From assembly GCF_020149915.1 (NCBI RefSeq), contig NZ_CP083760.1, positions 186,001 to 250,000 of the forward strand: a DNA stretch of 64,000 nucleotides, read 5' to 3'. Below the pieces are notes generated by a model, which was not told the DNA's origin, searched no databases, and saw nothing but the letters and a program-made list of their open reading frames with translations. This document shows, one piece after another, positions 16,209 to 35,043 of the stretch. Position numbers and translations under genes: made by a program. The DNA is from Candidatus Sulfidibacterium hydrothermale (GTDB lineage Bacteria; Bacteroidota; Bacteroidia; Bacteroidales; F082). Within the stretch, counting starts at the first letter, position 1, and each line of letters opens with the position of its first letter.

Positions 16209-16832
16209 ATGGATTTTTTACTGTTACTGATTATCCTTTCGGGAATTCTGCACATTATCGGCTTAATTATCGAAAACCCTTCGTTAAAAATGGTTTTCAA
16301 ACCACTGACCACCCTGCTTATCATTTTCTTTGCCTTTTCGCGGGGAGATGCTGTTTCGGCGTATAAAACCCTTTTGCTGGCCGGATTGGTATTTGCCTTG
16401 ATCGGAGATATTTTTCTGATGCTTCCGCGCGAACAGTTTGTGGCCGGACTGGTTTCTTTTCTGATAGCCCATCTCTTTTTTATTCTGGCTTTCACAGGAA
16501 ACCACGGTTTTTACTGGAATTGGATTTATCTGGCACCAATCTTTGTCTATTTTACATTGCTTATCAACATACTGATAAAACATACCGGAAAAATGACACT
16601 ACCGGTAATTGTTTACTCTGTTGTTATTATGATTTTTGTCTGGCAAGCTGCCGGACGTTATGCTACTCTTCCGAATTCTTTTGCGGCTTTTGCTTTATAC
16701 GGAGCCATTTTATTTGTTTTGTCCGATTCGCTGTTAGCCTATGACAAATTTGTCAAACCCATGAAATGGACACACAGCGTGGTGATGATTCTTTACTGGA
16801 CTGCGCTTTATTTCTTAGCTTTGTCGGTATAA
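16209..16832 (+). CDS. Lysoplasmalogenase, YhhN/TMEM86 family
   Basis: 207 residues with eight predicted transmembrane helices and the family hallmarks LAGLVFALIGDIFLML (about residues 57-72) and AILFVLSDSLLAYDKF (about 159-174); the two aspartates in GDIFLM and SDS are conserved and probably catalytic. The family hydrolyses the vinyl-ether bond of lysoplasmalogens. A hydrolase gene starts 12 bp downstream, so the two are likely co-transcribed. Confidence 0.85.
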   Translation: MDFLLLLIILSGILHIIGLIIENPSLKMVFKPLTTLLIIFFAFSRGDAVSAYKTLLLAGLVFALIGDIFLMLPREQFVAGLVSFLIAHLFFILAFTGNHGFYWNWIYLAPIFVYFTLLINILIKHTGKMTLPVIVYSVVIMIFVWQAAGRYATLPNSFAAFALYGAILFVLSDSLLAYDKFVKPMKWTHSVVMILYWTALYFLALSV

Positions 16833-25461: not shown

Positions 25462-27144
25462 TTAATTATCCCTGTTTACCCGGAGTTCTCTTCCGCCTTT
25501 TAGTACAATGTTTTTAAAATTACTACTGATCTTGCGGCTTACACGGGCATCGACTTCAAAAAAAGAGTACGATCCCTGAAGATCAACATGTCCGATGTCG
25601 GATGGTTTTACCTTGGCATGCAGACAAATAAAATCCATTAAATCATGTTTATTCATTCGGTCGCGTGTACCCAAATTAATGAAAAACCGCGGGTGCCATT
25701 CTCCGTTTTTATTTTGTGTGGTTTCTTCGCTTCCGGACCTTGATTTTTTTGTTCCGGCTTTCCGGTTTTCAAACTTTCTTTTCTCGCCCCGGCTTTCTTT
25801 TCTTTTTTCTTTTTTGGCAGAAGCACGGTTTAAATCGCCCGAGTTATCCAACTGCAGCTTATCCAGCTCATGCGACAACAATTTGGCAATCAGTTCTTCT
25901 TTTGTCAGGTTTTCAAAAATTTGTTCTGCCTTGCTTTGTACGCCGGAGGGAAGTGCTTTGGCAATTTTACGATCTGAAATTTGCCGGCACCAGTTTTCAA
26001 GACGAATATCGGCAATTTGTCCGCTATCCGGAATTTTTACTTTTTTAAACGTGATATTCAGCTTTTTCTGCAGTTTTTCGATTTTAGCTTTTTCGCGGGT
26101 ATGAACAAAAGCCACAGAGATACCGGTTTTTCCGGCCCGGGCTGTTCTTCCGCTCCGATGGGTATAATAAGCCGCATCATCCGGGAGGGTGTAATGAAAA
26201 ACATGGGTTAAATCATCGACATCAATACCACGGGCAGCTACATCTGTAGCAATAAGAATTTGTAAATCGTGTGTTTTAAAGCGTTTCATTACGCGGTCGC
26301 GCTGTGCCTGCGAAAGATCGCCGTGTAAAGCATCTACTTTGTAATTTTTACGCTGCAACACATCCGACAAATTTTGCGTATCGCGACGGGTACGACAAAA
26401 AATAAGTCCGCGCATATCCTGATGAAAATCAAGAAACCGTGTCAGCGCTTCCGGTTTATCCGATTGTTTTACCACCACATACTGGTGTTCGATATTTACA
26501 TTAACCGGATTGGCATCATCATCGGCTTTCACCTCAACCGGATTGGTCATGTATTTGTTTACGATCTTTCTTATTTCGTGCGGCATCGTTGCCGAAAAGA
26601 GCCAGGTTTGTTTTTCCGACGGGGTAAAACTTAAAATTTTATCAATGTCTTCTTTAAAACCCATATTGAGCATTTCATCGGCTTCGTCCAATACGAGAAA
26701 ACGAAGCTTGTCCAGATGTACTGCTTTTCGCTCAATCAGGTCGATAAGTCGTCCGGGAGTGGCAATAATAATTTGCTGAGGTTGACGCAGGGCTTTGATC
26801 TGATTGAAAATAGCAGCTCCGCCATATACCGGCAAAATGTTAATTTTTCCAAGATATTTAGCAAACAAATTGAGCTGTTCTGCAATTTGTTGTCCCAGTT
26901 CACGGGTTGGTGCTAAAACCAACGCCTGGGTAAAAGATTCGTTTCCGTCAATTTGTTCCAAAAGCGGAATACCAAAAGCGGCTGTTTTTCCGGTACCAGT
27001 ATTTGCCAAACCAATAAAATCACTGTTTTCAAAAAGTAAAGTGGGAATGGTTTGTTCTTGTATTTCCGTAGGACGGGAAAAGCCGAGATCGGCAAGAGCT
27101 TTCAATACTTCATCAGAAAGCCCGAGTTGTTGAAAATTATGCAA
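25462..27144 (-). CDS. DEAD-box ATP-dependent RNA helicase (DeaD/CsdA-like)
   Basis: 560 residues. Motifs in order: Q motif (FSRPTEIQEQTIP), Walker A ANTGTGKT (47-54), PTRELGQQ, DEAD (153-156), SAT (184-186), HGDLSQAQRDRVM, IATDVAARGIDVDD and HRSGRTARAGKTG. A basic low-complexity linker (KKEKRKESRGEKRKFENR) leads to a C-terminal DbpA-type RNA-binding domain (RFFINLGTRDRMNKHDLMDFI). It unwinds structured RNA in ribosome assembly or cold adaptation. It is the last core gene before the cassette array. Confidence 0.95.
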   Translation of the reverse strand: MHNFQQLGLSDEVLKALADLGFSRPTEIQEQTIPTLLFENSDFIGLANTGTGKTAAFGIPLLEQIDGNESFTQALVLAPTRELGQQIAEQLNLFAKYLGKINILPVYGGAAIFNQIKALRQPQQIIIATPGRLIDLIERKAVHLDKLRFLVLDEADEMLNMGFKEDIDKILSFTPSEKQTWLFSATMPHEIRKIVNKYMTNPVEVKADDDANPVNVNIEHQYVVVKQSDKPEALTRFLDFHQDMRGLIFCRTRRDTQNLSDVLQRKNYKVDALHGDLSQAQRDRVMKRFKTHDLQILIATDVAARGIDVDDLTHVFHYTLPDDAAYYTHRSGRTARAGKTGISVAFVHTREKAKIEKLQKKLNITFKKVKIPDSGQIADIRLENWCRQISDRKIAKALPSGVQSKAEQIFENLTKEELIAKLLSHELDKLQLDNSGDLNRASAKKEKRKESRGEKRKFENRKAGTKKSRSGSEETTQNKNGEWHPRFFINLGTRDRMNKHDLMDFICLHAKVKPSDIGHVDLQGSYSFFEVDARVSRKISSNFKNIVLKGGRELRVNRDN

Positions 27145-27170
27145 TAAGATATTCTTTATTAAATGAGCGG

Positions 27171-27178
27171 CAAAAGTA
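27171..27178 (-). promoter_or_regulatory. -7 box of the DEAD-box helicase gene
   Basis: The minus strand reads TACTTTTG (TAnnTTTG), 27 bp upstream of the ATG. It lies just outside the left 123-bp direct repeat, so the array insertion left the helicase promoter intact. Confidence 0.5.
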
Positions 27179-27205
27179 CATCAAAAAGCATTACCTCTTA
27201 CCAAA

Positions 27206-27328
27206 GCTTAAAAATATTATTGAAAATAAGTAAGTTACAAAAAAACACCGGAGGTTTAAACGAAAAAAAGCTGCACTCAAAAAGAGTGCAGCTTTTTCTT
27301 AACCTGTGGAGCATACCGGAATCGAACC
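27206..27328. repeat. Left 123-bp direct repeat flanking the cassette array (contains truncated tRNA-Ala 3' end)
   Basis: Matches 34609-34731 at 122 of 123 positions (single C/T difference at 27247). It holds an A/T-rich lead, the tRNA terminator hairpin and the last 22 nt of the tRNA-Ala gene (27307-27328). At 27329 identity to the tRNA stops and array repeat sequence begins. This looks like an attachment-site duplication made by insertion at the tRNA 3' end. Confidence 0.95.
27269..27297. terminator. Terminator hairpin, left duplicate copy
   Basis: GCTGCACTC / GAGTGCAGC stem with an AAAAA loop, flanked by an A run and TTTTT, hence active in both directions. It is the duplicate of the tRNA-Ala terminator at 34672-34700 and separates the helicase promoter from the array. 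Confidence 0.85.
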
Positions 27329-27383
27329 CCCCAACTGGTTCAAGTCTTCCCGTCCGGCCTGTGCGGGGGCGAGACTTGGGTCA
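27327..27383 (+). repeat. Array repeat R0 (left-arm variant)
   Basis: Left arm CCCCAACTGGTTCAAGTCTT followed by a shortened GC-rich section (CCCGTCCGGCCTGTGCGGGGGC) and GAGACTTGGGTCAT. It lacks the conserved 55-bp right half found in the other copies and abuts the truncated tRNA. Confidence 0.75.
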
Positions 27384-27418
27384 TAAAAAATTTGGAACAT
27401 CAAACCCAAAACTTTTTC

Positions 27419-27426
27419 TATCTTTA
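27419..27426 (+). promoter_or_regulatory. Candidate promoter at the head of the array
   Basis: TATCTTTA differs from TAnnTTTG by one base and points into the array, between R0 and R1. It could be the common promoter for downstream cassettes. Weak evidence. Confidence 0.25.
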
Positions 27427-27487
27427 TCACCGGAAACCAGACAGTATAATAACAGCATGAAAACCCGACATCCGTTTTTCGGCATCA

Positions 27488-27605
27488 ACCACACTGGTAC
27501 AAGCTTTTCTGCCCGGTTTGTGTGCAGATGTATTAGTGGCCCAAGTCAGCCACACGCGGAGCTTGCGCACAAGACTTGCGCCAGTTGGGGCCAGTTGGGG
27601 GGGGG
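27488..27605 (+). repeat. Array repeat R1
   Basis: Full-length copy (ACACTGGTACAAGC ... AAGACTTGCGCCAGTTGGGG) with the last ten bases, CCAGTTGGGG, duplicated in tandem (27591-27600 after 27581-27590 region). It precedes cassette 1. Confidence 0.85.
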
Positions 27606-27697
27606 AGAAACAAATTTATCTAAGCAAAGAATGCTAAATGACTATAAAGTAGACAAAAATATGGAACAAGACAACACAAGTCTAATCTAATAAAACT

Positions 27698-28204
27698 ATG
27701 ATTAACTTCAAATTTAAGGCTCCTAATTTTGATGTGTTCTATTCTAAATTTAGTGGAATTATTGGAATAGAAATTGGCGTAGTATTAGGAGGTATATATT
27801 CAATGTTTTCATTTTGGGAGATTCAACTGTTTGCGTTGCCGGTAATTTTAGTACTTTTATTATCTAAATATAATAATACTATAACAGAAATTAGTATTGA
27901 TGAAGAAAAACAAATTTTTATAATTTTTATCAATAGTTTCATAAATAAAAAAAAATACATACTAAATTTTACTGATTTAAAAGTTAATGTAAGGTTTAAA
28001 TGGTTGCTGAATTATTATGGTGATGTTATTGAAATAAAAAATAAGAATAATATAATTGCAGTAATACCCATTGCCGGATCTGAATATAATAAAAGTGTTA
28101 AAAAGCACTTAATAAATTATTTCAAAGATATAAGTAATAAAAGTCTTATAAGTTATTCTGAAACAGAAAATGCAAAAAAGAGTATGGCTTGGTTTCTAAA
28201 ATAA
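27698..28204 (+). CDS. Cassette 1: membrane protein of unknown function (two helices plus beta-rich domain)
   Basis: 168 residues. Two hydrophobic helices (about residues 22-40 and 43-57) are followed by a soluble domain starting ITEISIDEEKQIFIIFINSFINKKKYILNFTDLKV, a run of short beta strands that looks like a bacterial PH-type domain. Strongly AT-rich with ATA/AAT-heavy codons, unlike the flanking helicase and tRNA. Cassettes 5 and 8 share the architecture. No family is recognised with confidence. Confidence 0.75.
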   Translation: MINFKFKAPNFDVFYSKFSGIIGIEIGVVLGGIYSMFSFWEIQLFALPVILVLLLSKYNNTITEISIDEEKQIFIIFINSFINKKKYILNFTDLKVNVRFKWLLNYYGDVIEIKNKNNIIAVIPIAGSEYNKSVKKHLINYFKDISNKSLISYSETENAKKSMAWFLK

Positions 28205-28210
28205 AGATTC

Positions 28211-28313
28211 CCCCAACTGGTACAAGTCTTTCTGCCCGGTTTGTGTGCAGGTGTATTAGTGGCCCAAGTCAGCTACACGCGGAGCTTGCGCACAAGACTT
28301 GCGCCAGTTGGGG
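28211..28313 (+). repeat. Array repeat R2 (reference copy)
   Basis: Cleanest copy. The outer arms CCCCAACTGGTACAAGTCTT (28211-28230) and AAGACTTGCGCCAGTTGGGG (28294-28313) pair at 18 of 20 positions. The right-hand part, from TTAGTGGCCCAAGTCAGC through GGAGCTTGCGCACAAG, is the section most conserved between copies. Confidence 0.9.
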
Positions 28314-28395
28314 GGGGCGGGCGGGCTTCATATGTAAAGCCAATCCAACCTCAAAATATAAAAGTGACTAATGATAAGAATATTAATCTTAAATT

Positions 28396-29241
28396 ATGAA
28401 AAAAGGATTTATTTTTTTACTTCTTGCATTAATCTCAGATTATGCTTTTAGTCAGACATTTTTAACCGATACTGTAAGTTGGAACCAATATGAAATAAAC
28501 TATAGTAAAAAGTTGAAACTGGAAAAAATTAAAAAGATTAAAGATGACTTAATAAAATATTTAGAATCGAACGATGAGCTCCAAAACAATTTACATAATT
28601 TCCATTTTTTTGACTATAACGGTGATGGTAATATTGATATAATATATACGGGGGATGCAGGGACAGATTCTGAAAGGACATTGATATTTGTGAGAGGTGA
28701 TAATAGTGATTACGTCAAGAAATTTGACAAGTTTGGCAGTGTTGTTAACCTATCTTCTGCAATCTGCCAAAAGACACCTCCCTATACATTTGTTTTGAAA
28801 GAGGTTGAATGTTGTGGGGGAAATTGCGTTGTTTATCAGGCGTATCAACCAGTTAATGAGAATGGGGGCTTTAAATTACATTTATCAATGAAATACAGTA
28901 TTATTAAAGGCACAAAATTCCCTGATGTATATTTTAATAAAAAGCTATTGTTTCGTGTAACAAGTGATATTTATAATTTAAGATTGAATCCTACTATTGA
29001 CAGCGTAACTACTAACATAGGACTTCATATTCGAGGAAATGTAGTTGCTGAATATTCAAAAGGTGCTGAAGGTTATGCAATAGCCCAGACAAAGGATAAA
29101 ACAGGTCGGATATGGTGGTTTGTTATTATGCTCAATAATAACAAACCTATACAAAGTATATTTGATGGAGGAGATAACGAGGGCTATAAATTTTATTCGT
29201 TAGGCTGGATGAGTAGTAAATATTTAGAAAAGGTAGAATAG
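28396..29241 (+). CDS. Cassette 2: secreted protein with FG-GAP-like and SH3-like segments
   Basis: 281 residues. Signal peptide MKKGFIFLLLALISDYAFSQ. Around residue 75 the text FFDYNGDGNIDIIYTGD is an FG-GAP/EF-hand-like calcium loop; near residues 215-250 GLHIRGNVVAEYSKGAEGYAIAQTKDKTGRIWWFVIM resembles a bacterial SH3-like strand set. Two cysteine clusters (ECCGGNC) suggest disulfides in an exported protein. AT-rich; function unknown. Confidence 0.75.
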   Translation: MKKGFIFLLLALISDYAFSQTFLTDTVSWNQYEINYSKKLKLEKIKKIKDDLIKYLESNDELQNNLHNFHFFDYNGDGNIDIIYTGDAGTDSERTLIFVRGDNSDYVKKFDKFGSVVNLSSAICQKTPPYTFVLKEVECCGGNCVVYQAYQPVNENGGFKLHLSMKYSIIKGTKFPDVYFNKKLLFRVTSDIYNLRLNPTIDSVTTNIGLHIRGNVVAEYSKGAEGYAIAQTKDKTGRIWWFVIMLNNNKPIQSIFDGGDNEGYKFYSLGWMSSKYLEKVE

Positions 29242-29249
29242 ATTAATAA

Positions 29250-29355
29250 GTTACAGAAGCCTTCCTGTTCCGGTTCGTGCGGGGGGTAATTAGTAGCCCA
29301 AGTCAGCTACACGCGGAGCTTGCGCACAAGACTTGCGCCAAAGGGGCCAAAGGGG
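29250..29355 (+). repeat. Array repeat R3 (diverged arms)
   Basis: The conserved right half is intact (AGTCAGCTACACGCGGAGCTTGCGCACAAGACTTGCGCC), but the terminal arm reads AAAGGGG twice in place of AGTTGGGG and the left CCAACTGG arm is lost. Confidence 0.8.
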
Positions 29356-29451
29356 CGGGAACATTAAAAGAAGTTAAAGTTGTAGGCAAAGGCAATGGAT
29401 ATATTAAACCTCTTACAGTTACCAATATAACCTCAAATTATTAATGAAAAA

Positions 29452-30219
29452 ATGATAAGAATAATTATTTCAACTATTGTATTATTAATAAGCTCGTGTG
29501 CATTAAGCCAAGAACGCTCAAAAATACCCGTCGTAAGAATAACAAATTTTGACATTTTGCATCTAGCAATTGACAATAATTGTATTGATTCAATTGGATA
29601 TGAAAAAATTGATGATGGGCCTGATATAGGCGTTATTTCAATGGCCCTTAATGAAAATGACGTTTATTTAGCTGATAAATACCATGGAAATATAAAAAGG
29701 CTTAATCTTGTTTCTGGGAAAATGATATCAAGCGATATATTAAATTCACATCATCAGCCATGGATAAACGATATTTGTATTTTTGATCGACACCTTGTTG
29801 TTTTGAGTGATATAGACACTTGTTATATCTTGAATTTAGATCTTAACCAGATTGAATATTTCACTTTAGAAAGAGGAGATAAATTTTTTACAAAAATTGG
29901 AGATTCTTTATATGTATATAATTTATCTACACAAAAGTGTTTGAAGTTAAGTGATATATACAAGATTAGAAGAAAAGAAATTGATTGTGATATGCCCGAT
30001 ATCTGGAACAAATCTAATTTAATCAAGGATTATAGGTATTTAAAAGTAAATGGAAGTAGATTTATTATTTTTTTAAATCAGAAATTACAAATAAAAACAG
30101 AGTTTCCTCTGAATTTAATTAGATATGATGCAAGAAATTTAGATTTTAACAAAAAAAAATTAGTTTATTTTGGGTATAAAGATAACCAATTTATGATTTA
30201 TGTGTATAATTTCAAGTAG
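29452..30219 (+). CDS. Cassette 3: exported lipoprotein, possible beta-propeller
   Basis: 255 residues. N-terminus MIRIIISTIVLLISSCALSQ has a lipobox-like LISSC with Cys16, then several repeated strands (GVISMALNENDVYLADKYHGNIKRLNLVSG, DICIFDRHLVVLSDIDTCYILNLDLNQ) of the kind seen in beta-propeller or 6-bladed sensor proteins. Very AT-rich. Not assigned to a family. Confidence 0.75.
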   Translation: MIRIIISTIVLLISSCALSQERSKIPVVRITNFDILHLAIDNNCIDSIGYEKIDDGPDIGVISMALNENDVYLADKYHGNIKRLNLVSGKMISSDILNSHHQPWINDICIFDRHLVVLSDIDTCYILNLDLNQIEYFTLERGDKFFTKIGDSLYVYNLSTQKCLKLSDIYKIRRKEIDCDMPDIWNKSNLIKDYRYLKVNGSRFIIFLNQKLQIKTEFPLNLIRYDARNLDFNKKKLVYFGYKDNQFMIYVYNFK

Positions 30220-30242
30220 CCTAAGTGATGCCATCAACTAGC

Positions 30243-30348
30243 CCAACCTACTATGGCTCAAGTCTTTCCGTCCGGTCCGAGCGGGGGTAATAAGTGGCCC
30301 AAGTCAGCTACACGCGGAGCTTGCGCACAAGACTTGCGCCAGTTGGGG
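30243..30348 (+). repeat. Array repeat R4
   Basis: CCAACCTACTATGGCTCAAGTCTTTCC ... GACTTGCGCCAGTTGGGG; the left arm carries a few inserted bases relative to R2, the right half is identical in the conserved core. Confidence 0.85.
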
Positions 30349-30399
30349 GGGGAAAAATTAAATAATGTAAATTTTTTTACAATAATTTTAAATTAGAAG

Positions 30400-30699
30400 A
30401 TGAAAAAAATATTTTTGAGAATCGGTTTTTGGTCAAATATCGCTTTATATGCAAGTTATTTCCTGCTTTTTTTAGCAGTGATTTTGAACCTTGAAAGCGT
30501 AAAATCATTTATTCTGAGTAGTAATTTTAATAATATAAAATCTATTATTTCCTTATTTGTAGTAATTTTTTGGATATATAATTTAATTCTGTGGTCAAAA
30601 TACGATAAGAAGATAGGTAATTTTCTTTTATTGTTTTTTTTAATAGGAATCTATACGCCATTCTATTATTTAAAAGCAGTGAAAAATAAGTGGGTTTAG
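30400..30699 (+). CDS. Cassette 4: small membrane protein
   Basis: 99 residues with three hydrophobic stretches (about residues 12-30, 46-63 and 75-92) and lysine-rich ends. No recognisable domain. The next ORF begins 75 bp later without a recognisable array repeat, so cassettes 4 and 5 may be one two-gene cassette. Confidence 0.65.
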   Translation: MKKIFLRIGFWSNIALYASYFLLFLAVILNLESVKSFILSSNFNNIKSIISLFVVIFWIYNLILWSKYDKKIGNFLLLFFLIGIYTPFYYLKAVKNKWV

Positions 30700-30774
30700 T
30701 GTTCCCGTCTAGCGCAGTTTTTCCGTTTGTTACATACACAGGAGAGAGTATTCAATAAGTATTCATATTTTCAA

Positions 30775-31254
30775 ATGAACTTTCAGCCTAAATACAGATC
30801 ATATCAAAAGAGAGTGTGGAATCAAATAAATGCAACCATTATTTTGTTTATTTCTATTGTAATGGTTTTATTCATTTTGTTGCCTATCACTAGTATTTTA
30901 ACCATTTTGTATGGTTTGTTACTTGTTATTTTGATTTTAATTCTTCGAATCTCTGTTGTTCACAGGTTTTTTTTTAAACAATTAGAAATTGATAACAATG
31001 TTGGATATATTAGAATTATTGTTTTTAGGTATAACAAGTTGCACAGGGAATATTTTGCACCTTGTAAAGAGATTAAAATAAGCATTGAACAAGTCTTTTT
31101 TTCTTTACGGCCGTATTATTGCATGAAAATATATATGAATAATAATCTAATTTTAAAACAATACGAATGTAATTCATGGAAGAAAAATGATATGTATACT
31201 GTTTATAATGAATTTAAAAGATTAAAAAAAGAATTTGTAAAATCTAAAGATTAA
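30775..31254 (+). CDS. Cassette 5: two-helix membrane protein with beta-rich domain
   Basis: 159 residues from the ATG at 30775 (MNFQPKYRSYQKRVWNQ); the frame is open to 30727 but that upstream stretch is not hydrophobic and looks non-coding. Two adjacent helices (about residues 20-58) precede a domain beginning QLEIDNNVGYIRIIVFRYNKLHREYFAPCKEIKISI. This matches the layout of cassettes 1 and 8. Function unknown. Confidence 0.7.
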   Translation: MNFQPKYRSYQKRVWNQINATIILFISIVMVLFILLPITSILTILYGLLLVILILILRISVVHRFFFKQLEIDNNVGYIRIIVFRYNKLHREYFAPCKEIKISIEQVFFSLRPYYCMKIYMNNNLILKQYECNSWKKNDMYTVYNEFKRLKKEFVKSKD

Positions 31255-31271
31255 TATTTAATAAAATGTAC

Positions 31272-31374
31272 TCAACCTCCACTGGTCCAGACTTTCCCGG
31301 CTCGTGTGGGGGGTAATTGGTGGCCCAAGTCAGCCACATGCGGAGCTTGCGCACAAGACTTGTGCCAGTTGGGG
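31272..31374 (+). repeat. Array repeat R5
   Basis: TCAACCTCCACTGGTCCAGACTTTCCCGG ... ACTTGTGCCAGTTGGGG; conserved core present with C-to-T changes (CACATGCGG, CTTGTGCC). Confidence 0.85.
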
Positions 31375-31443
31375 GGAAATTTAAGGCTTAAGCCAAAAAC
31401 TATAAGAATTAATACCATTGTTCCAAATATTAACTAAAAAATT

Positions 31444-32208
31444 ATGACAGTTATTAAATTAACCAAACAAATATTTGTATTTACATGTTTAGTACTTTCT
31501 TTATTGTCTTGCTCAAACAATAATCCAAAGCAAAAGGAGAAAAAATTGCATACCAAAAATAAATTAGTTAATAACAGCCTGAAATGCAAACTTGTTGGTG
31601 ATGATTTACCAAATAAGCTAAACAGATCCTTAAAATTTAAAAATGTTCAAACAATAATATCAGATTTAAATGATGACTCTAAACCAGATTCTATTTTTAT
31701 AGATAAAATAATCAAATGGACTGATAGTGATGGGAAAATAAATGATTGGGATGACCCTGGTGAATTTCATCGGATACGTATATTGATATCTGGTGATTTA
31801 CCGGTAATCTGGATAAATGTAGATGGTTGGGTCTCAAACAAGGGACTTTCGTATTTTGACAGTACCTTTAACAAAAAGAATATTGTTAATTCAAATTATA
31901 TAACAGTTAAACGTTTTTTAGGTAGAGGTAAATTAATTTTTTGTACAGGTTATACGTATGCCAGTAGTCCCGGACTGTTAACAATTATACAAATAAATAA
32001 CAAGCAACCTAGACTGATTTTTAATAAGGAGGCATATCTAGTTCAACTAAAAAGTTTAAATAAAAATGGCTTAATGGCTCTTGTTACGAGTAATTGGGAT
32101 AAATATCAAATTGAACATGAGAGAAAAAGTAGTTATAAAGTTTATGTATTTGAAGATGGGTTTTGCTATAATAAAGAACTTTCAAAATCTTTTAAAGGAA
32201 AGGATTAA
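31444..32208 (+). CDS. Cassette 6: lipoprotein with FG-GAP-like segment
   Basis: 254 residues. Lipoprotein signal with lipobox LLSC (Cys23) followed by SNNNPKQKEKK. At about residue 75, IISDLNDDSKPDSIFIDK is an FG-GAP-like calcium-loop motif, reminiscent of cassette 2. A later GRGKLIFCTGYTYASSPGLLTIIQ stretch is beta-rich. Very AT-rich; no family assigned. Confidence 0.75.
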   Translation: MTVIKLTKQIFVFTCLVLSLLSCSNNNPKQKEKKLHTKNKLVNNSLKCKLVGDDLPNKLNRSLKFKNVQTIISDLNDDSKPDSIFIDKIIKWTDSDGKINDWDDPGEFHRIRILISGDLPVIWINVDGWVSNKGLSYFDSTFNKKNIVNSNYITVKRFLGRGKLIFCTGYTYASSPGLLTIIQINNKQPRLIFNKEAYLVQLKSLNKNGLMALVTSNWDKYQIEHERKSSYKVYVFEDGFCYNKELSKSFKGKD

Positions 32209-32311
32209 CCCCTAACTGGTTCAAGTCTTTCCGCCCGGTCTGTGTGCAGGTTTATTAGTGGCCCAAGTCAGCCACACGTGGAGCTTACGCACAAGACTTG
32301 CGCCAGTTGGG
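32209..32311 (+). repeat. Array repeat R6
   Basis: Begins immediately after the cassette 6 stop codon (CCCCTAACTGGTTCAAGTCTTTCCGCCC) and ends ACTTGCGCCAGTTGGG. Confidence 0.85.
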
Positions 32312-32375
32312 AAAGATCTTATAGAATCGGAAAAAACAGACAACAGAACAAAAATAAAGAAAAGAATAGAAAGTA

Positions 32376-32897
32376 ATGATCTACGCATTAATCATTTATA
32401 TGCTATCAGTAGCCATACCTGCAAGAAAAAATTATCTTCATAGTTCCCAACTTTCAATAGGGGTAAAAGCAATTCATTTAATTATTACATCTATTTTATT
32501 CATATATTATTTTAGTAATTTTAGAATGATGCTTTGGAACCTGTTTCGTAATGGAACAGAAGGTTTTTATACAATAAAAGGAGTTTATGCATATAATAAA
32601 TCGACTGATTTAATTATTTCTATTTTATTTTTTGCAATTTCATTTTTTGTATCAGGCCTTGCTTTAAACTTAGCAGTAAGAGCTAAGAGTAGAAAATTAT
32701 TATTGCTGACATCCCCCTTAATAATAATTGCTACCAGTTTTGATTTATACAAGTTTACAATAATTGAATCTATCTCTGAAAAAGACAATTTATTTCTTTT
32801 ATTTATCATCTTGTTTATAGGAATATTCTTTGGTTTGATAAATTTATTCTACAATATAAAACCAGGAAAAAATATTTTTCGAGTTGGAGATAGTTAA
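32376..32897 (+). CDS. Cassette 7: polytopic membrane protein
   Basis: 173 residues with four hydrophobic helices (about residues 3-14, 27-50, 77-103 and 131-153) and a short cytoplasmic tail. A 15-residue region between helices 2 and 3 (NGTEGFYTIKGVYAYNKSTD) is probably exposed. No domain is recognised. AT-rich like its neighbours. Confidence 0.7.
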   Translation: MIYALIIYMLSVAIPARKNYLHSSQLSIGVKAIHLIITSILFIYYFSNFRMMLWNLFRNGTEGFYTIKGVYAYNKSTDLIISILFFAISFFVSGLALNLAVRAKSRKLLLLTSPLIIIATSFDLYKFTIIESISEKDNLFLLFIILFIGIFFGLINLFYNIKPGKNIFRVGDS

Positions 32898-32910
32898 CCT
32901 GATGCCGTGT

Positions 32911-33004
32911 CCCACACTGGTACAACTCTTTCTGCCCGCAGGTTTATTAGTGGCCCAAGTCAGCCACATGCGGAGCTTGCGCACAAGACTTGCGCCAGTT
33001 GGGG
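32911..33004 (+). repeat. Array repeat R7
   Basis: Shortened left arm (CCCACACTGGTACAACTCTTTCTGCCCGC) with a ~12-bp deletion relative to R2; intact conserved right half ending CCAGTTGGGG. Confidence 0.85.
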
Positions 33005-33045
33005 GGCATTAAACGAAGACAAAGAGAAAAAGATAATTAATAACT

Positions 33046-33528
33046 ATGAATACAAATGTTTTTAAAACAGCATCTTCATTATATCCAAATATAATTTATT
33101 CTTGGTTAATTCGAACAATTGTTATGGTTACAATTTTTTTATATTCAATTTTCGAATTACCGTTATATCTTGGTATTCCATACATATTTATTGCATTCTA
33201 TTTAATTTTTGTAAAATTCTTTCAATATAAATTATACCGTTTTTTTTATAGAATTGAATTTGATGATGATAAACAGATAATTACGTTTTATTATCGTGAT
33301 AATATGATTAAAAAAGGGAAATATGTTTTGCCATATTCGGAATTAGAAATCTATAGGAGAAAAACCATTTTGTCAACATCTATTTTCATAAAAGATAAAC
33401 GAAAAGAAAAGTTTTTCAGATACATCGGAGTCATATCCAAAGAATATTTTTTTGGTAATAAATATTGGAATAAAGAATTATTTAATTCATTATCTGAAAA
33501 GTTTGATAAGATATTAAATATAAAATGA
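33046..33528 (+). CDS. Cassette 8: two-helix membrane protein with beta-rich domain
   Basis: 160 residues. Two helices (about residues 20-40 and 43-60) lead into FYRIEFDDDKQIITFYYRDNMIKKGKYVLPYSELEIYRRKTI, then a basic KDKRKEKFF stretch and an amphipathic C-terminal helix. The order and spacing of elements match cassettes 1 and 5, which suggests divergent members of one family. Unknown function. Confidence 0.75.
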   Translation: MNTNVFKTASSLYPNIIYSWLIRTIVMVTIFLYSIFELPLYLGIPYIFIAFYLIFVKFFQYKLYRFFYRIEFDDDKQIITFYYRDNMIKKGKYVLPYSELEIYRRKTILSTSIFIKDKRKEKFFRYIGVISKEYFFGNKYWNKELFNSLSEKFDKILNIK

Positions 33529-33530
33529 AT

Positions 33531-33594
33531 CCTTATTAGTGGCCCAAGTCAGCCACACGTGGAGCTTACGCACAGGACTTGCGCCAATTGGGGG
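33531..33594 (+). repeat. Array repeat R8 (right half only)
   Basis: Only the conserved right half is present (TTAGTGGCCCAAGTCAGC ... GGACTTGCGCCAATTGGGG). The left arm has been lost between the cassette 8 stop and 33531. Confidence 0.85.
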
Positions 33595-33633
33595 TAATTT
33601 TTCCATAATTCTTAATCTTATAAAATAATTAAA

Positions 33634-34155
33634 ATGAAAAATAAGGCAAAGTTTGTTTTTATGCTTATTGCAATTATTATATCTGAAATAACTTATTCTC
33701 AAAATAAAGTGATTACAATTGGCAATGGGCATTCAAATAAGGTAGATAGCTTGCTAATAAATACGATAAAAGATTATCAGAAGAAAATAATCAAAGATGA
33801 TAAGAACTCAATAATAACAGCTAATATTAGGGCGATATCAAAAAGCAAGTTAGATGTTACCTTAGGCTATATTTTAAATGACTACGACCTTTCCTTTTAC
33901 AAACCTTCATATGTTTTTTACACAGACAATAAAACTTGTGTGCTAGTGAGGGCAGATTCGACAGCTATAATTAATTACAAAGGGAATATTTCTTTTAAAA
34001 TAATGACAGCTGTTCTGGCTGATAAGATTAAAGCACGACTAAATAATTCCAAAGAAGGTATTTATTCATATTCTCCGGTATACTGGATAATTTCCTATCA
34101 GAATGGAATGATTAAAATAACTAAGAATCTTTTAAAGTTGCCCCCTGGTTATTAG
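33634..34155 (+). CDS. Cassette 9: secreted protein of unknown function
   Basis: 173 residues. Signal peptide MKNKAKFVFMLIAIIISEITYS precedes a small mixed alpha/beta domain; its segments include YVFYTDNKTCVLVRADSTAI and YSYSPVYWIISYQNGMIKI. Last intact ORF of the array. AT-rich; no family assigned. Confidence 0.7.
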   Translation: MKNKAKFVFMLIAIIISEITYSQNKVITIGNGHSNKVDSLLINTIKDYQKKIIKDDKNSIITANIRAISKSKLDVTLGYILNDYDLSFYKPSYVFYTDNKTCVLVRADSTAIINYKGNISFKIMTAVLADKIKARLNNSKEGIYSYSPVYWIISYQNGMIKITKNLLKLPPGY

Positions 34156-34164
34156 CTTTCTCCA

Positions 34165-34183
34165 CCCCCCAACTGGTACAAGA
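34165..34183 (+). repeat. Array repeat R9, left arm (split copy)
   Basis: CCCCCCAACTGGTACAAGA, then identity stops. The matching right half lies 370 bp downstream at 34556, so this copy is either split by inserted DNA or is the edge of a decayed cassette. Confidence 0.7.
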
Positions 34184-34295
34184 TACTGTGTTAAAATCCA
34201 AATTTATTTTCATTTCATTTTCAAAATGTTTTATTAATTTTGACACTATCTGAAAGAAGGCTTTGGTCGATACTTTGAACTGAAGTCTATCTTGT

Positions 34296-34326
34296 ATAGT
34301 GGGAGTTTGTCTCCCACTATTTTTTT
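34296..34326 (+). terminator. Intrinsic terminator inside the last cassette
   Basis: Perfect 10-bp stem ATAGTGGGAG / CTCCCACTAT with a 5-nt loop followed by seven T residues; ideal for stopping transcription running rightward out of the array. Confidence 0.85.
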
Positions 34327-34340
34327 GCTTCGCAAAAAAG

Positions 34341-34407
34341 CCCCCCTCTGGCACGAGTCTTCCCGCGCGGCCCGTGCCCTGTGCGCCGGCAGGATTTAGG
34401 CAGAGCC
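34341..34407 (+). repeat. Array repeat variant with GC-rich arm
   Basis: CCCCCCTCTGGCACGAGTCTTCCCGCGCGGCCCGTGCC then GGCAGGATTTAGGCAGAG. Same reduced layout as R0 at the left edge, with which it shares ...GTCTTCCCG; probably the boundary variant of the repeat. Confidence 0.55.
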
Positions 34408-34461
34408 AAACAGCCCGGAACTTCCTTACCCGAATGAACAAAGCTAACGGACAGATATTTT

Positions 34462-34469
34462 TATCTTTG
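34462..34469 (+). promoter_or_regulatory. Candidate -7 box in the decayed last cassette
   Basis: TATCTTTG, an exact TAnnTTTG match, about 55 bp after the repeat variant, in the same relative place as the box at 27419 after R0. No convincing gene follows. Confidence 0.3.
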
Positions 34470-34555
34470 TCGAATGAGCTGCAAGTAAAACGATTGATGT
34501 TGAAACCATATTATCATAATTATCAAGAGTATTGTGAAATAAAAAGTGTTTTAGT

Positions 34556-34609
34556 TTGGCCCAAGTCAGCCACGCGCATGGTTTACGCACAAGACTTGCG
34601 CCAGTGGGG
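34556..34609 (+). repeat. Array repeat R9, right half (array end)
   Basis: TGGCCCAAGTCAGCCACGCGCATGG ... CGCACAAGACTTGCGCCAGTGGGG, a shortened final arm, immediately joined to the right direct repeat. Confidence 0.85.
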
Positions 34610-34731
34610 CTTAAAAATATTATTGAAAATAAGTAAGTTACAAAAAAATACCGGAGGTTTAAACGAAAAAAAGCTGCACTCAAAAAGAGTGCAGCTTTTT
34701 CTTAACCTGTGGAGCATACCGGAATCGAACC
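34609..34731. repeat. Right 123-bp direct repeat flanking the array
   Basis: Copy of 27206-27328 with one substitution. It includes the tRNA terminator and reads on into the intact tRNA-Ala gene, so this side is the reconstituted target. Confidence 0.95.
34672..34700 (-). terminator. tRNA-Ala terminator
   Basis: GCTGCACTC / GAGTGCAGC hairpin with an A-rich loop; on the minus strand it is followed by a T run and lies 10 bp past the tRNA 3' end. Confidence 0.85.
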
Positions 34732-34783
34732 GGTGACCTCTTGACTGCCAGTCAAACGCTCTAGCCAACTGAGCTAATGCCCC
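34710..34783 (-). tRNA. tRNA-Ala (anticodon GGC)
   Basis: Folds as a full cloverleaf on the minus strand: acceptor GGGGCAT/ATGCTCC with the G3:U70 wobble that identifies alanine tRNAs, D stem GCTC/GAGC, anticodon loop CTGGCAG (anticodon GGC), T arm ACCGG TTCGATT CCGGT and discriminator A. CCA is not encoded. Its 3' 22 nt are duplicated at 27307-27328 at the far end of the cassette array, so it appears to have been used as an insertion site. Confidence 0.97.
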
Positions 34784-34795
34784 AAAAGGTGGGTG

Positions 34796-34803
34796 CAAAG
34801 ATA
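34796..34803 (-). promoter_or_regulatory. -7 box of the tRNA-Ala gene
   Basis: The minus strand reads TATCTTTG, exact TAnnTTTG, 12 bp upstream of the mature 5' end. Confidence 0.6.
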
Positions 34804-35043
34804 AAAAAATTTCAAATCCACCTTGAAAAAGAAAAATTTATTCCGGCCGATATTTTTTACCACTAGCTAATTCCGGTTTTGACGCGCTGATAATATCTTC
34901 GTTTTATTGCCCTGTTTCCACTGAGTTTTGGATAGAAATTTTTCCGGTTTAAATCATTAAACCCCTTCGGGATTTCTGCAAAACCATTTTGGAAAAAAAG
35001 AAAACCATATGGAGGTATCGCATCAAAAAGAGAATCAGTCTTA

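What the first reader, a model, noticed from the sequence alone, without database searches (positions are those of the whole stretch)
27329..34609. Integron-like array of single-gene cassettes with a ~100-bp palindromic repeat between ORFs
Nine short ORFs, all on the + strand and all much more AT-rich than the genes on either side, alternate with copies of one imperfect palindrome. Most repeats begin within a few bases to ~60 bp after an ORF stop, so each unit is ORF plus repeat, as in integron cassettes (ORF plus attC). Sequences between the repeats are unrelated, while the repeats are closely alike. This is how a site-specific recombination array looks, and its outward resemblance to Bacteroidota recombinase-associated immunity-gene clusters (rAID) is worth testing.
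Basis: partly seen in the sequence, partly recalled or inferred. Interest (0 to 1): 0.92.

Follow-up and report, generated by a model that had tools for sequence, protein, structure and literature searches.

The report
Transposon-spaced array of orphan antidote genes
A bacterium of the Bacteroidota carries a row of antidote-like genes, at least two of which follow the cut-off end of what looks like their toxin gene, with a remnant of the same small transposon in front of each; it is not an integron, and related transposases lie behind toxin genes in some other bacteria too.

Summary
The repeat consists of two inverted hairpins, L and R, the ends of an IS200-like element encoding a REP-associated tyrosine transposase (RAYT, NCBIfam NF047646). 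L-RAYT-R occurs twice in this genome (one copy broken) and alone between unrelated genes in a relative; the ~103-nt repeat is its internally deleted form. All 21 matches found in this genome lie in five loci with short immunity-like ORFs, one with Rhs core fragments. R is fused to stubs: before ORF F the end of an Rhs-core toxin ORF, before ORF G the end of a probable toxin remnant. An open stub reaching the next start follows R in 10 of 10 scored cassettes (shuffle mean 3.3; 0 of 2,000 reach 10), 14 of 15 with those first left out. Five of nine ORFs have copies in another array with breakpoints at or near the repeats. No tyrosine recombinase was found in the window. Six of 80 related RAYT loci elsewhere hold an Rhs core, each just upstream on RAYT's strand. 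I read it as a disarmed Rhs toxin-immunity array punctuated by RAYT remnants. Immunity function and RAYT's role are inferred.

The parts
27206..27328 (.). left copy of the 123-bp direct repeat; its last 23 bp match the 3' end of tRNA-Ala
27329..27381 (+). complete L hairpin (left end of the RAYT element)
   Evidence: 60.0 bits
27382..27491 (+). scrap of Rhs-core-derived sequence; part of a 254-nt block 92% identical to array A2
27492..27588 (+). repeat 1: truncated L plus R
27598..27690 (+). open stub ending 7 nt before ORF A (presumed 3' tail of a deleted toxin gene)
27698..28204 (+). ORF A, 168 aa, membrane protein by eye; copy in array A2, 98% aa
28210..28312 (+). repeat 2: truncated L plus R
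28319..28399 (+). open stub whose stop overlaps the start of ORF B
28396..29241 (+). ORF B, 281 aa, secreted by eye; homologues in 9 other of 393 genomes of the order
29244..29346 (+). repeat 3: degenerate L plus R
29355..29444 (+). open stub before ORF C
29452..30219 (+). ORF C, 255 aa, secreted by eye
30245..30347 (+). repeat 4: truncated L plus R
30400..30699 (+). ORF D, 99 aa, membrane protein by eye; copy in array A2, 97% aa
30775..31254 (+). ORF d, 159 aa from the ATG, membrane protein by eye; copy in array A2, 94% aa
31271..31373 (+). repeat 5: truncated L plus R
31381..31437 (+). open stub before ORF E
31444..32208 (+). ORF E, 254 aa, lipoprotein by eye
32209..32311 (+). repeat 6: truncated L plus R
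32313..32375 (+). stub homologous to the 3' end of the Rhs-core toxin ORF of array A3 (L023:3706-4830)
32376..32897 (+). ORF F, 173 aa, membrane protein by eye; homologue (77% aa) lies right behind that toxin ORF in array A3
32901..33003 (+). repeat 7: truncated L plus R
33010..33041 (+). stub homologous to the 3' end of L023:8213-8527, a 104-aa ORF that I take for a toxin remnant
33046..33528 (+). ORF G, 160 aa, membrane protein by eye; copy in array A3, 97% aa
33534..33591 (+). repeat 8: R alone
33599..33628 (+). short open stub before ORF H
33634..34155 (+). ORF H, 173 aa, secreted by eye
34343..34377 (+). degenerate L
34557..34608 (+). repeat 9: R alone
34609..34731 (.). right copy of the 123-bp direct repeat, overlapping tRNA-Ala
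34709..34783 (-). tRNA-Ala(GGC)

Best explanation
The block is an array of orphan immunity genes from Rhs-type polymorphic toxin modules. In each module the toxin gene was removed except for its last codons (about 10 to 30 in the window), and the right end (R) of a RAYT transposon is fused to that stub; the immunity gene behind it was kept. The ~103-nt repeats are internally deleted L-RAYT-R elements (MITE/REPIN-like). Likely history: tandem displaced Rhs tips, each preceded by L; a RAYT element came to lie in the 3' part of a toxin gene; deletion between L and R took out the toxin and the transposase gene. As most modules then begin with R and end with L, the repeats are shared homology (and possibly transposase substrates) by which single immunity cassettes were copied between arrays. 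The genes would protect against Rhs toxins of neighbours. Shown: identity of the repeat, stub homology for F and G, open stubs, cassette copies with breakpoints at or near repeats. Suggested: purifying selection on F and G. Inferred: that the ORFs are immunity genes, the order of steps, and whether RAYT or RecA moves cassettes.
For: RAYT between L and R in A2 (NF047646 109.6 bits, cut-off 80) and A4. L-RAYT-R between unrelated genes in G152 (L weak, E 0.038), a 5'-truncated copy in G146, and L..R pairs of about 200 bp without RAYT in five further loci. Three R copies of A3 carry about 42 nt of the RAYT 3' flank. Cassette A follows the intact RAYT element in A2 and the deleted one in A1, identity starting at the first bases of R. 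F and G stubs align to the ends of ORFs in A3. Stub test 10 of 10, null mean 3.3, 0 of 2,000 dinucleotide shuffles; 15 settings with simple shuffles, 0 of 1,000 each. dN/dS 0.22 (F), 0.25 (G), point values. All 21 genome matches lie in five loci, 27 kb as I drew them. Rhs core near 6 of 80 related RAYT loci, each upstream, same strand, 0.3-1.4 kb.
Against: No ORF matches a named immunity family (Pfam and PADLOC with all nine; NCBIfam with six of nine). Stub homology is shown for two of eight window cassettes, and G's partner is a 104-aa ORF without an Rhs core. The A2 copy of D has no such stub. None of the 9 ORF-B homologues elsewhere has an Rhs core in the fetched flanks by my small profile. 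A differs between A1 and A2 by 3 nonsynonymous and 0 synonymous changes. The genome has three Rhs-core frames, the longest open frame 387 aa, so no full-length Rhs gene was found. 74 of 80 related RAYT loci show no Rhs core, and three other of this genome's six RAYT matches sit among ordinary genes.
Confidence: 0.72

Rival explanations
1. Integron-type cassette array: the repeat is an attC-like site recombined by a tyrosine integrase encoded elsewhere.
For: ORF-plus-repeat units; palindromic repeat whose ends read CCCCAAC...GTTGGGG (6 of 7 letters each of the recalled RYYYAAC and GTTRRRY); cassette-wise copies. One recombinase of this genome (L218) passes the cut-off of NF040815, whose title names XerA and integron integrase (240.2 against 220). 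A different family of the order has attC-like arrays, two of which hold a homologue of ORF B.
Against: The repeat is the ends of a RAYT element that occurs without cassettes elsewhere; R goes with the downstream gene; no tyrosine recombinase found in the window, and none of five reaches TIGR02249's cut-off (best 206.8 against 265). L218 lies about 170 kb from the nearest array.
Confidence: 0.05
2. A member of rAID, the recombinase-associated immunity arrays of Bacteroidales.
For: Co-oriented short genes under 41% G+C, conserved sequence between them, probable orphan immunity genes.
Against: The defining upstream tyrosine recombinase is absent; the nearest found is 340 kb away. rAID's intergenic motif was not available for comparison.
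Confidence: 0.07
3. Same disarmed immunity array, but the RAYT remnants are passive: they landed in dispensable toxin stubs, and RecA-type recombination between repeats moved the cassettes.
For: Rhs tip exchange and immunity arrays are explained by homologous or illegitimate recombination in other bacteria; repeats of about 100 nt could serve; A4's RAYT has a stop codon.
Against: R is joined to stubs of many lengths but in 15 of 15 cases in front of the short ORF; 6 of 6 Rhs cores near related RAYT genes are upstream on the same strand. None of this proves catalysis.
Confidence: 0.4
4. Secreted and membrane proteins of other function, spread by a composite RAYT transposon; the stubs are chance open frames.
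For: No family match for any ORF; ORF B homologues lie away from Rhs cores.
Against: F's homologue sits behind an Rhs-core ORF in A3 and both F and G keep the end of the ORF in front of that homologue; stub statistic.
Confidence: 0.12

Closest known systems
Orphan immunity gene arrays of Vibrio cholerae T6SS clusters (PMC5361080, passages seen)
   Same: Toxin genes displaced, immunity genes retained side by side
   Different: That paper reports no specific integration sites; here a transposon end lies at each stub and cassettes occur at five scattered loci
rhs C-terminal tip displacement arrays (PMC2935791, passages seen)
   Same: Strings of partial core plus tip, as in array A3
   Different: In the window array core (but for one scrap) and toxin are gone and RAYT remnants take their place
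rAID arrays of Bacteroidales (PMC12247911, passages and one section seen)
   Same: Co-oriented AT-rich short genes with conserved spacers, orphan immunity
   Different: No tyrosine recombinase found here
RAYT/TnpA-REP with REP, BIME, REPIN; subclass 2.6, mostly Bacteroidetes with atypical hairpins (PMC6006769, passages seen)
   Same: Y1 transposase flanked by inverted hairpins; short deleted derivatives
   Different: The matches found in this genome lie in immunity-like loci instead of being dispersed; subclass not tested
H-repeat of E. coli rhs tips (PMC3032704, passage seen)
   Same: A transposon-like sequence tied to rhs tips
   Different: A different transposase type (recalled); no link to toxin stubs in the passage seen

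Membership tests
Integron cassette array | Integron integrase (IntI) in the genome or beside the array | tested here: not met
   five tyrosine recombinases, none over TIGR02249's cut-off, none in the window; one, L218, passes the broader NF040815
Integron cassette array | attC travels with the upstream ORF and is cut in GTTRRRY (recalled) | tested here: not met
   identity of cassette A begins at the start of R, which precedes the ORF
Integron cassette array | Core motifs RYYYAAC and GTTRRRY (recalled) | tested here: inconclusive
   6 of 7 letters at each end, by eye
rAID | Tyrosine recombinase upstream of the genes | tested here: not met
   definition
rAID | Two or more co-directional genes under 41% G+C | tested here: met
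rAID | rAID's own intergenic motif | not testable with these tools
   source paper not held
RAYT element and its deleted derivatives | RAYT gene between the two hairpins | tested here: met
RAYT element and its deleted derivatives | Copies elsewhere without cargo | tested here: met
   in related genomes; in this genome none found outside the five loci but one 3-mismatch L at 1916359
RAYT element and its deleted derivatives | Transposase cuts L and R | not testable with these tools
   bench assay
Orphan Rhs immunity array | Homologue paired with an Rhs toxin elsewhere | tested here: inconclusive
   met for F; G's homologue follows a 104-aa ORF without Rhs core; not seen for B; A gave no usable homologue; C, D, d, E, H not searched outside the fetched loci
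Orphan Rhs immunity array | Toxin absent or truncated | tested here: met
   by homology for F and G
Orphan Rhs immunity array | Neutralises the toxin | not testable with these tools
   bench assay

The most novel reading that the evidence does not exclude
In Bacteroidota a lineage of RAYT transposases works with Rhs toxin modules: it sits behind toxin-immunity pairs, its right end replaces toxin genes, and it turns immunity genes into single mobile cassettes bounded by R and L, a transposase-based route to acquired interbacterial immunity that needs no tyrosine recombinase.
Probability: 0.25. Interest if true: 0.85.

Novelty: new variant of a known kind. Interest (0 to 1): 0.62.

Why it matters
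Orphan immunity arrays are known, but in the papers I saw the loss of toxins with retention of antidotes is put down to recombination without specific sites. Here the cut is marked by the same transposon end in front of each stub, which makes the step visible and testable. It also offers RAYT transposases, whose upkeep in genomes is called an open question (PMC6006769, passages), a possible partner: interbacterial toxin loci. A search for R-like ends joined to toxin stubs could find further arrays that lack a recombinase gene.

Tried and rejected
Integron and rAID readings: see membership test. Rfam on 27000-35000 at E up to 0.1: only the tRNA. PADLOC: 0 of 9 ORFs. Pfam: none of 9 array ORFs over a cut-off. 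NCBIfam was given six of nine ORFs; none over a cut-off. Structure of ORF B (9-row alignment, mean pLDDT 71.7): 614 PDB matches with E up to 10, none at 0.001 or below. ORF A in 393 genomes of the order: outside this genome three weak matches with stops inside. Empty-site search: the tRNA region was found in all 11 other genomes of the genus; in G152 helicase and tRNA lie about 325 bp apart with no array, in the others the neighbours differ or the contig ends. These are different species, so no strain comparison of cassettes was possible. How the 123-bp repeat arose stays unexplained; one search showed no third copy (40 of 69 candidates scored). Family-wide RAYT and Rhs lists were cut off by the tool; compared by eye, the listed rows show three pairs within 4 kb on one contig (G033 and G022 Rhs upstream, G167 Rhs downstream; all same strand). 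This is weaker than the 6-of-6 pattern. R copies: 18 in the five loci, of which 15 are followed by a short co-oriented ORF. The stub count first took ten; left out were the A2 copies of A and D and three with gaps of 10-30 nt; scored later, four fit and A2's D does not. Literature: no paper of the held library holds both whole words RAYT and rhs; some searches were search listings. PMC2935791, PMC3482391, PMC5361080, PMC6006769, PMC7400221 and PMC3032704 were seen as passages, PMC12247911 as passages and one section; none was read whole.
Full report
WHAT IS THERE. The window is bases 186001-250000 of a single-contig genome of 3.27 Mb. I call it a member of the Bacteroidota because two related contigs, G027:C66 and G152:C5, have the lengths and RAYT genes of records named Chlorobiota and Bacteroidetes. 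Between a DEAD-box helicase gene (named by eye) and a tRNA-Ala gene lie nine co-oriented ORFs and nine copies of a repeat core. The ORFs have 21-31% G+C, the sides 42% and 39%. The block is framed by a 123-bp direct repeat (122 of 123) that includes 23 bp of the tRNA. In G152, of the same genus, the helicase and the tRNA are about 325 bp apart with no array between, so the block was inserted here or lost there.

WHAT THE REPEAT IS. Two inverted hairpins, L (about 53 nt) and R (about 58 nt), make up the repeat; in the array L is mostly truncated and twice missing. In array A2 of the same genome L and R flank an open RAYT gene (NF047646, 109.6 bits against a cut-off of 80); A4 has a second copy with a stop codon. 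In G152 the element (86% aa) stands between unrelated genes, though its L is weak (E 0.038); G146 has a 5'-truncated copy (88%); and L..R pairs of about 200 bp without RAYT occur in five further loci of G027, G028 and G032. Three R copies of A3 still carry about 42 nt of the RAYT 3' flank. So the repeat is an internally deleted RAYT element. A published class, subclass 2.6, is described as mostly Bacteroidetes with atypical flanking hairpins (PMC6006769, passages); I did not place this RAYT in a tree.

WHERE IT OCCURS. All 21 matches of the repeat in this genome lie in five loci, 27 kb as I drew them: 10 in A1 (the window), 5 in A2, 4 in A3, 1 in A4, 1 in A5. A pattern for L gave 15 places, 14 of them in these loci. 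In the family 10 of 173 genomes, this one included, have a match (at most five candidates per genome were scored).

WHAT THE GENES ARE. Array A3 holds three Rhs core frames (TIGR03696 over cut-off) with different tips, followed by short ORFs. ORF F of the window matches the ORF right behind one of them (77% aa); ORF G matches an A3 ORF behind a 104-aa ORF that I take for a toxin remnant (97%). In the window, the sequence between R and ORF F aligns to the last ~20 codons of the A3 Rhs ORF, and that between R and ORF G to the end of the 104-aa ORF. R is thus fused to the stub of the gene in front. In ten cassettes scored (eight of the window, one of A3, one of A5), a frame runs open from R to a stop within -12..+8 of the next start in 10 of 10; dinucleotide shuffles give a mean of 3.3 and 0 of 2,000 reach 10. 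With 15 settings of offset and stop window, 0 of 1,000 simple shuffles reached 10 in each. Short gaps pass easily by chance (D 0.50, F 0.48, G 0.63, H 0.72 of shuffles), so A, B, C, E and the A3 and A5 cassettes carry the test. Five cassettes had been left out; four fit, A2's copy of D does not, so D's stub is doubtful. dN/dS is 0.22 for F, 0.25 for G, 0.24 for D and 0.57 for d, without a significance test; A shows three nonsynonymous and no synonymous change.

CASSETTES MOVE SINGLY. Five of nine ORFs (A, D, d, F, G) have copies in A2 or A3. For A, identity starts at the first bases of R (27532 and L022:7878), stays near 99% and ends in L. A2 has the open RAYT in front of it, A1 the deleted form. 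A and D stand in another arrangement and with other neighbours in A1 and A2. For D and d the left identity starts in the repeat and the right one ends about 16 nt after the ORF d stop, just before L begins in A1. For G the right identity ends a few nt before its stop.

A WIDER PATTERN. A scan of the species-genome collection with the A2 RAYT gave 98 relatives, 80 kept. Six of the 80 loci hold an Rhs core by a profile of four sequences; all six lie upstream of RAYT on its strand, the Rhs frame ending 297-1,431 bp before it. The bin of 2 kb upstream on the same strand is 6.8% of the scanned strand-bases, chance 1e-7 if loci are independent. In five of the six a short ORF stands between Rhs and RAYT. 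Reichenbachiella agariperforans has three short-ORF units alternating with RAYT genes or remnants and repeats. Against: 74 of 80 show no Rhs core; in the family lists one of three pairs has Rhs downstream; and three other RAYT genes of this genome sit among ordinary genes.

MECHANISM. Best reading: displaced Rhs tips in tandem; a RAYT element in the 3' part of a toxin gene; deletion from L to R removing toxin and transposase; selection keeping the immunity gene; exchange of R-stub-immunity-L units between loci by recombination in the repeats. Arrays in Vibrio and rhs loci are explained by displacement without specific sites (PMC5361080, PMC2935791, passages). What differs here is the transposon end at the stubs. 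Whether RAYT acts or only marks the spot is open; I give the passive rival 0.4.

NOT AN INTEGRON, NOT rAID. Five tyrosine recombinases were found, none in the window; one lies 6-7 kb from A3. None passes the cut-off of TIGR02249; one, L218, passes the broader NF040815 but lies about 170 kb from the nearest array. rAID requires a recombinase upstream. An attC-like array was met in another family of the order and holds a homologue of ORF B, so such genes may travel in more than one kind of array.

Noticed in passing
L215 (G269:C12) and L216 (G369:C3): Arrays of mostly single co-oriented ORFs with ~125-nt attC-like repeats in another family of the same order; one cassette in each is a homologue of ORF B (34-39% aa). 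Looks like a sedentary integron; the integrase was not sought.
   Followed up: partly
window 27206-27328 and 34609-34731: 123-bp direct repeat at the ends of the array including 23 bp of tRNA-Ala; longer than usual att repeats (recalled), no integrase found nearby, no third copy seen.
   Followed up: partly
L220 and L023 (genome 2183000-2207900): Array A3 lies 6-7 kb from a 385-aa tyrosine integrase, with an IS4-family transposase and primase-like genes (by eye) between, so it may ride on an integrative element; two near-identical 1.26-kb transposase-like pairs lie on its other side.
   Followed up: no
L154:1-5000 (Reichenbachiella agariperforans): Short secreted or membrane ORFs alternate with RAYT genes or remnants and repeats, an array of similar build with another repeat.
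   Followed up: partly
L022:16125-16314 and 16523-16712: tRNA-Gly and tRNA-Val genes share a 190-nt stretch across their 3' ends at 94%, a second case of duplicated tRNA 3' flanks in this genome.
   Followed up: no
L218 (genome 1942739): 387-aa recombinase over the cut-off of NF040815, with an N-terminal extension; no array beside it was looked for.
   Followed up: no
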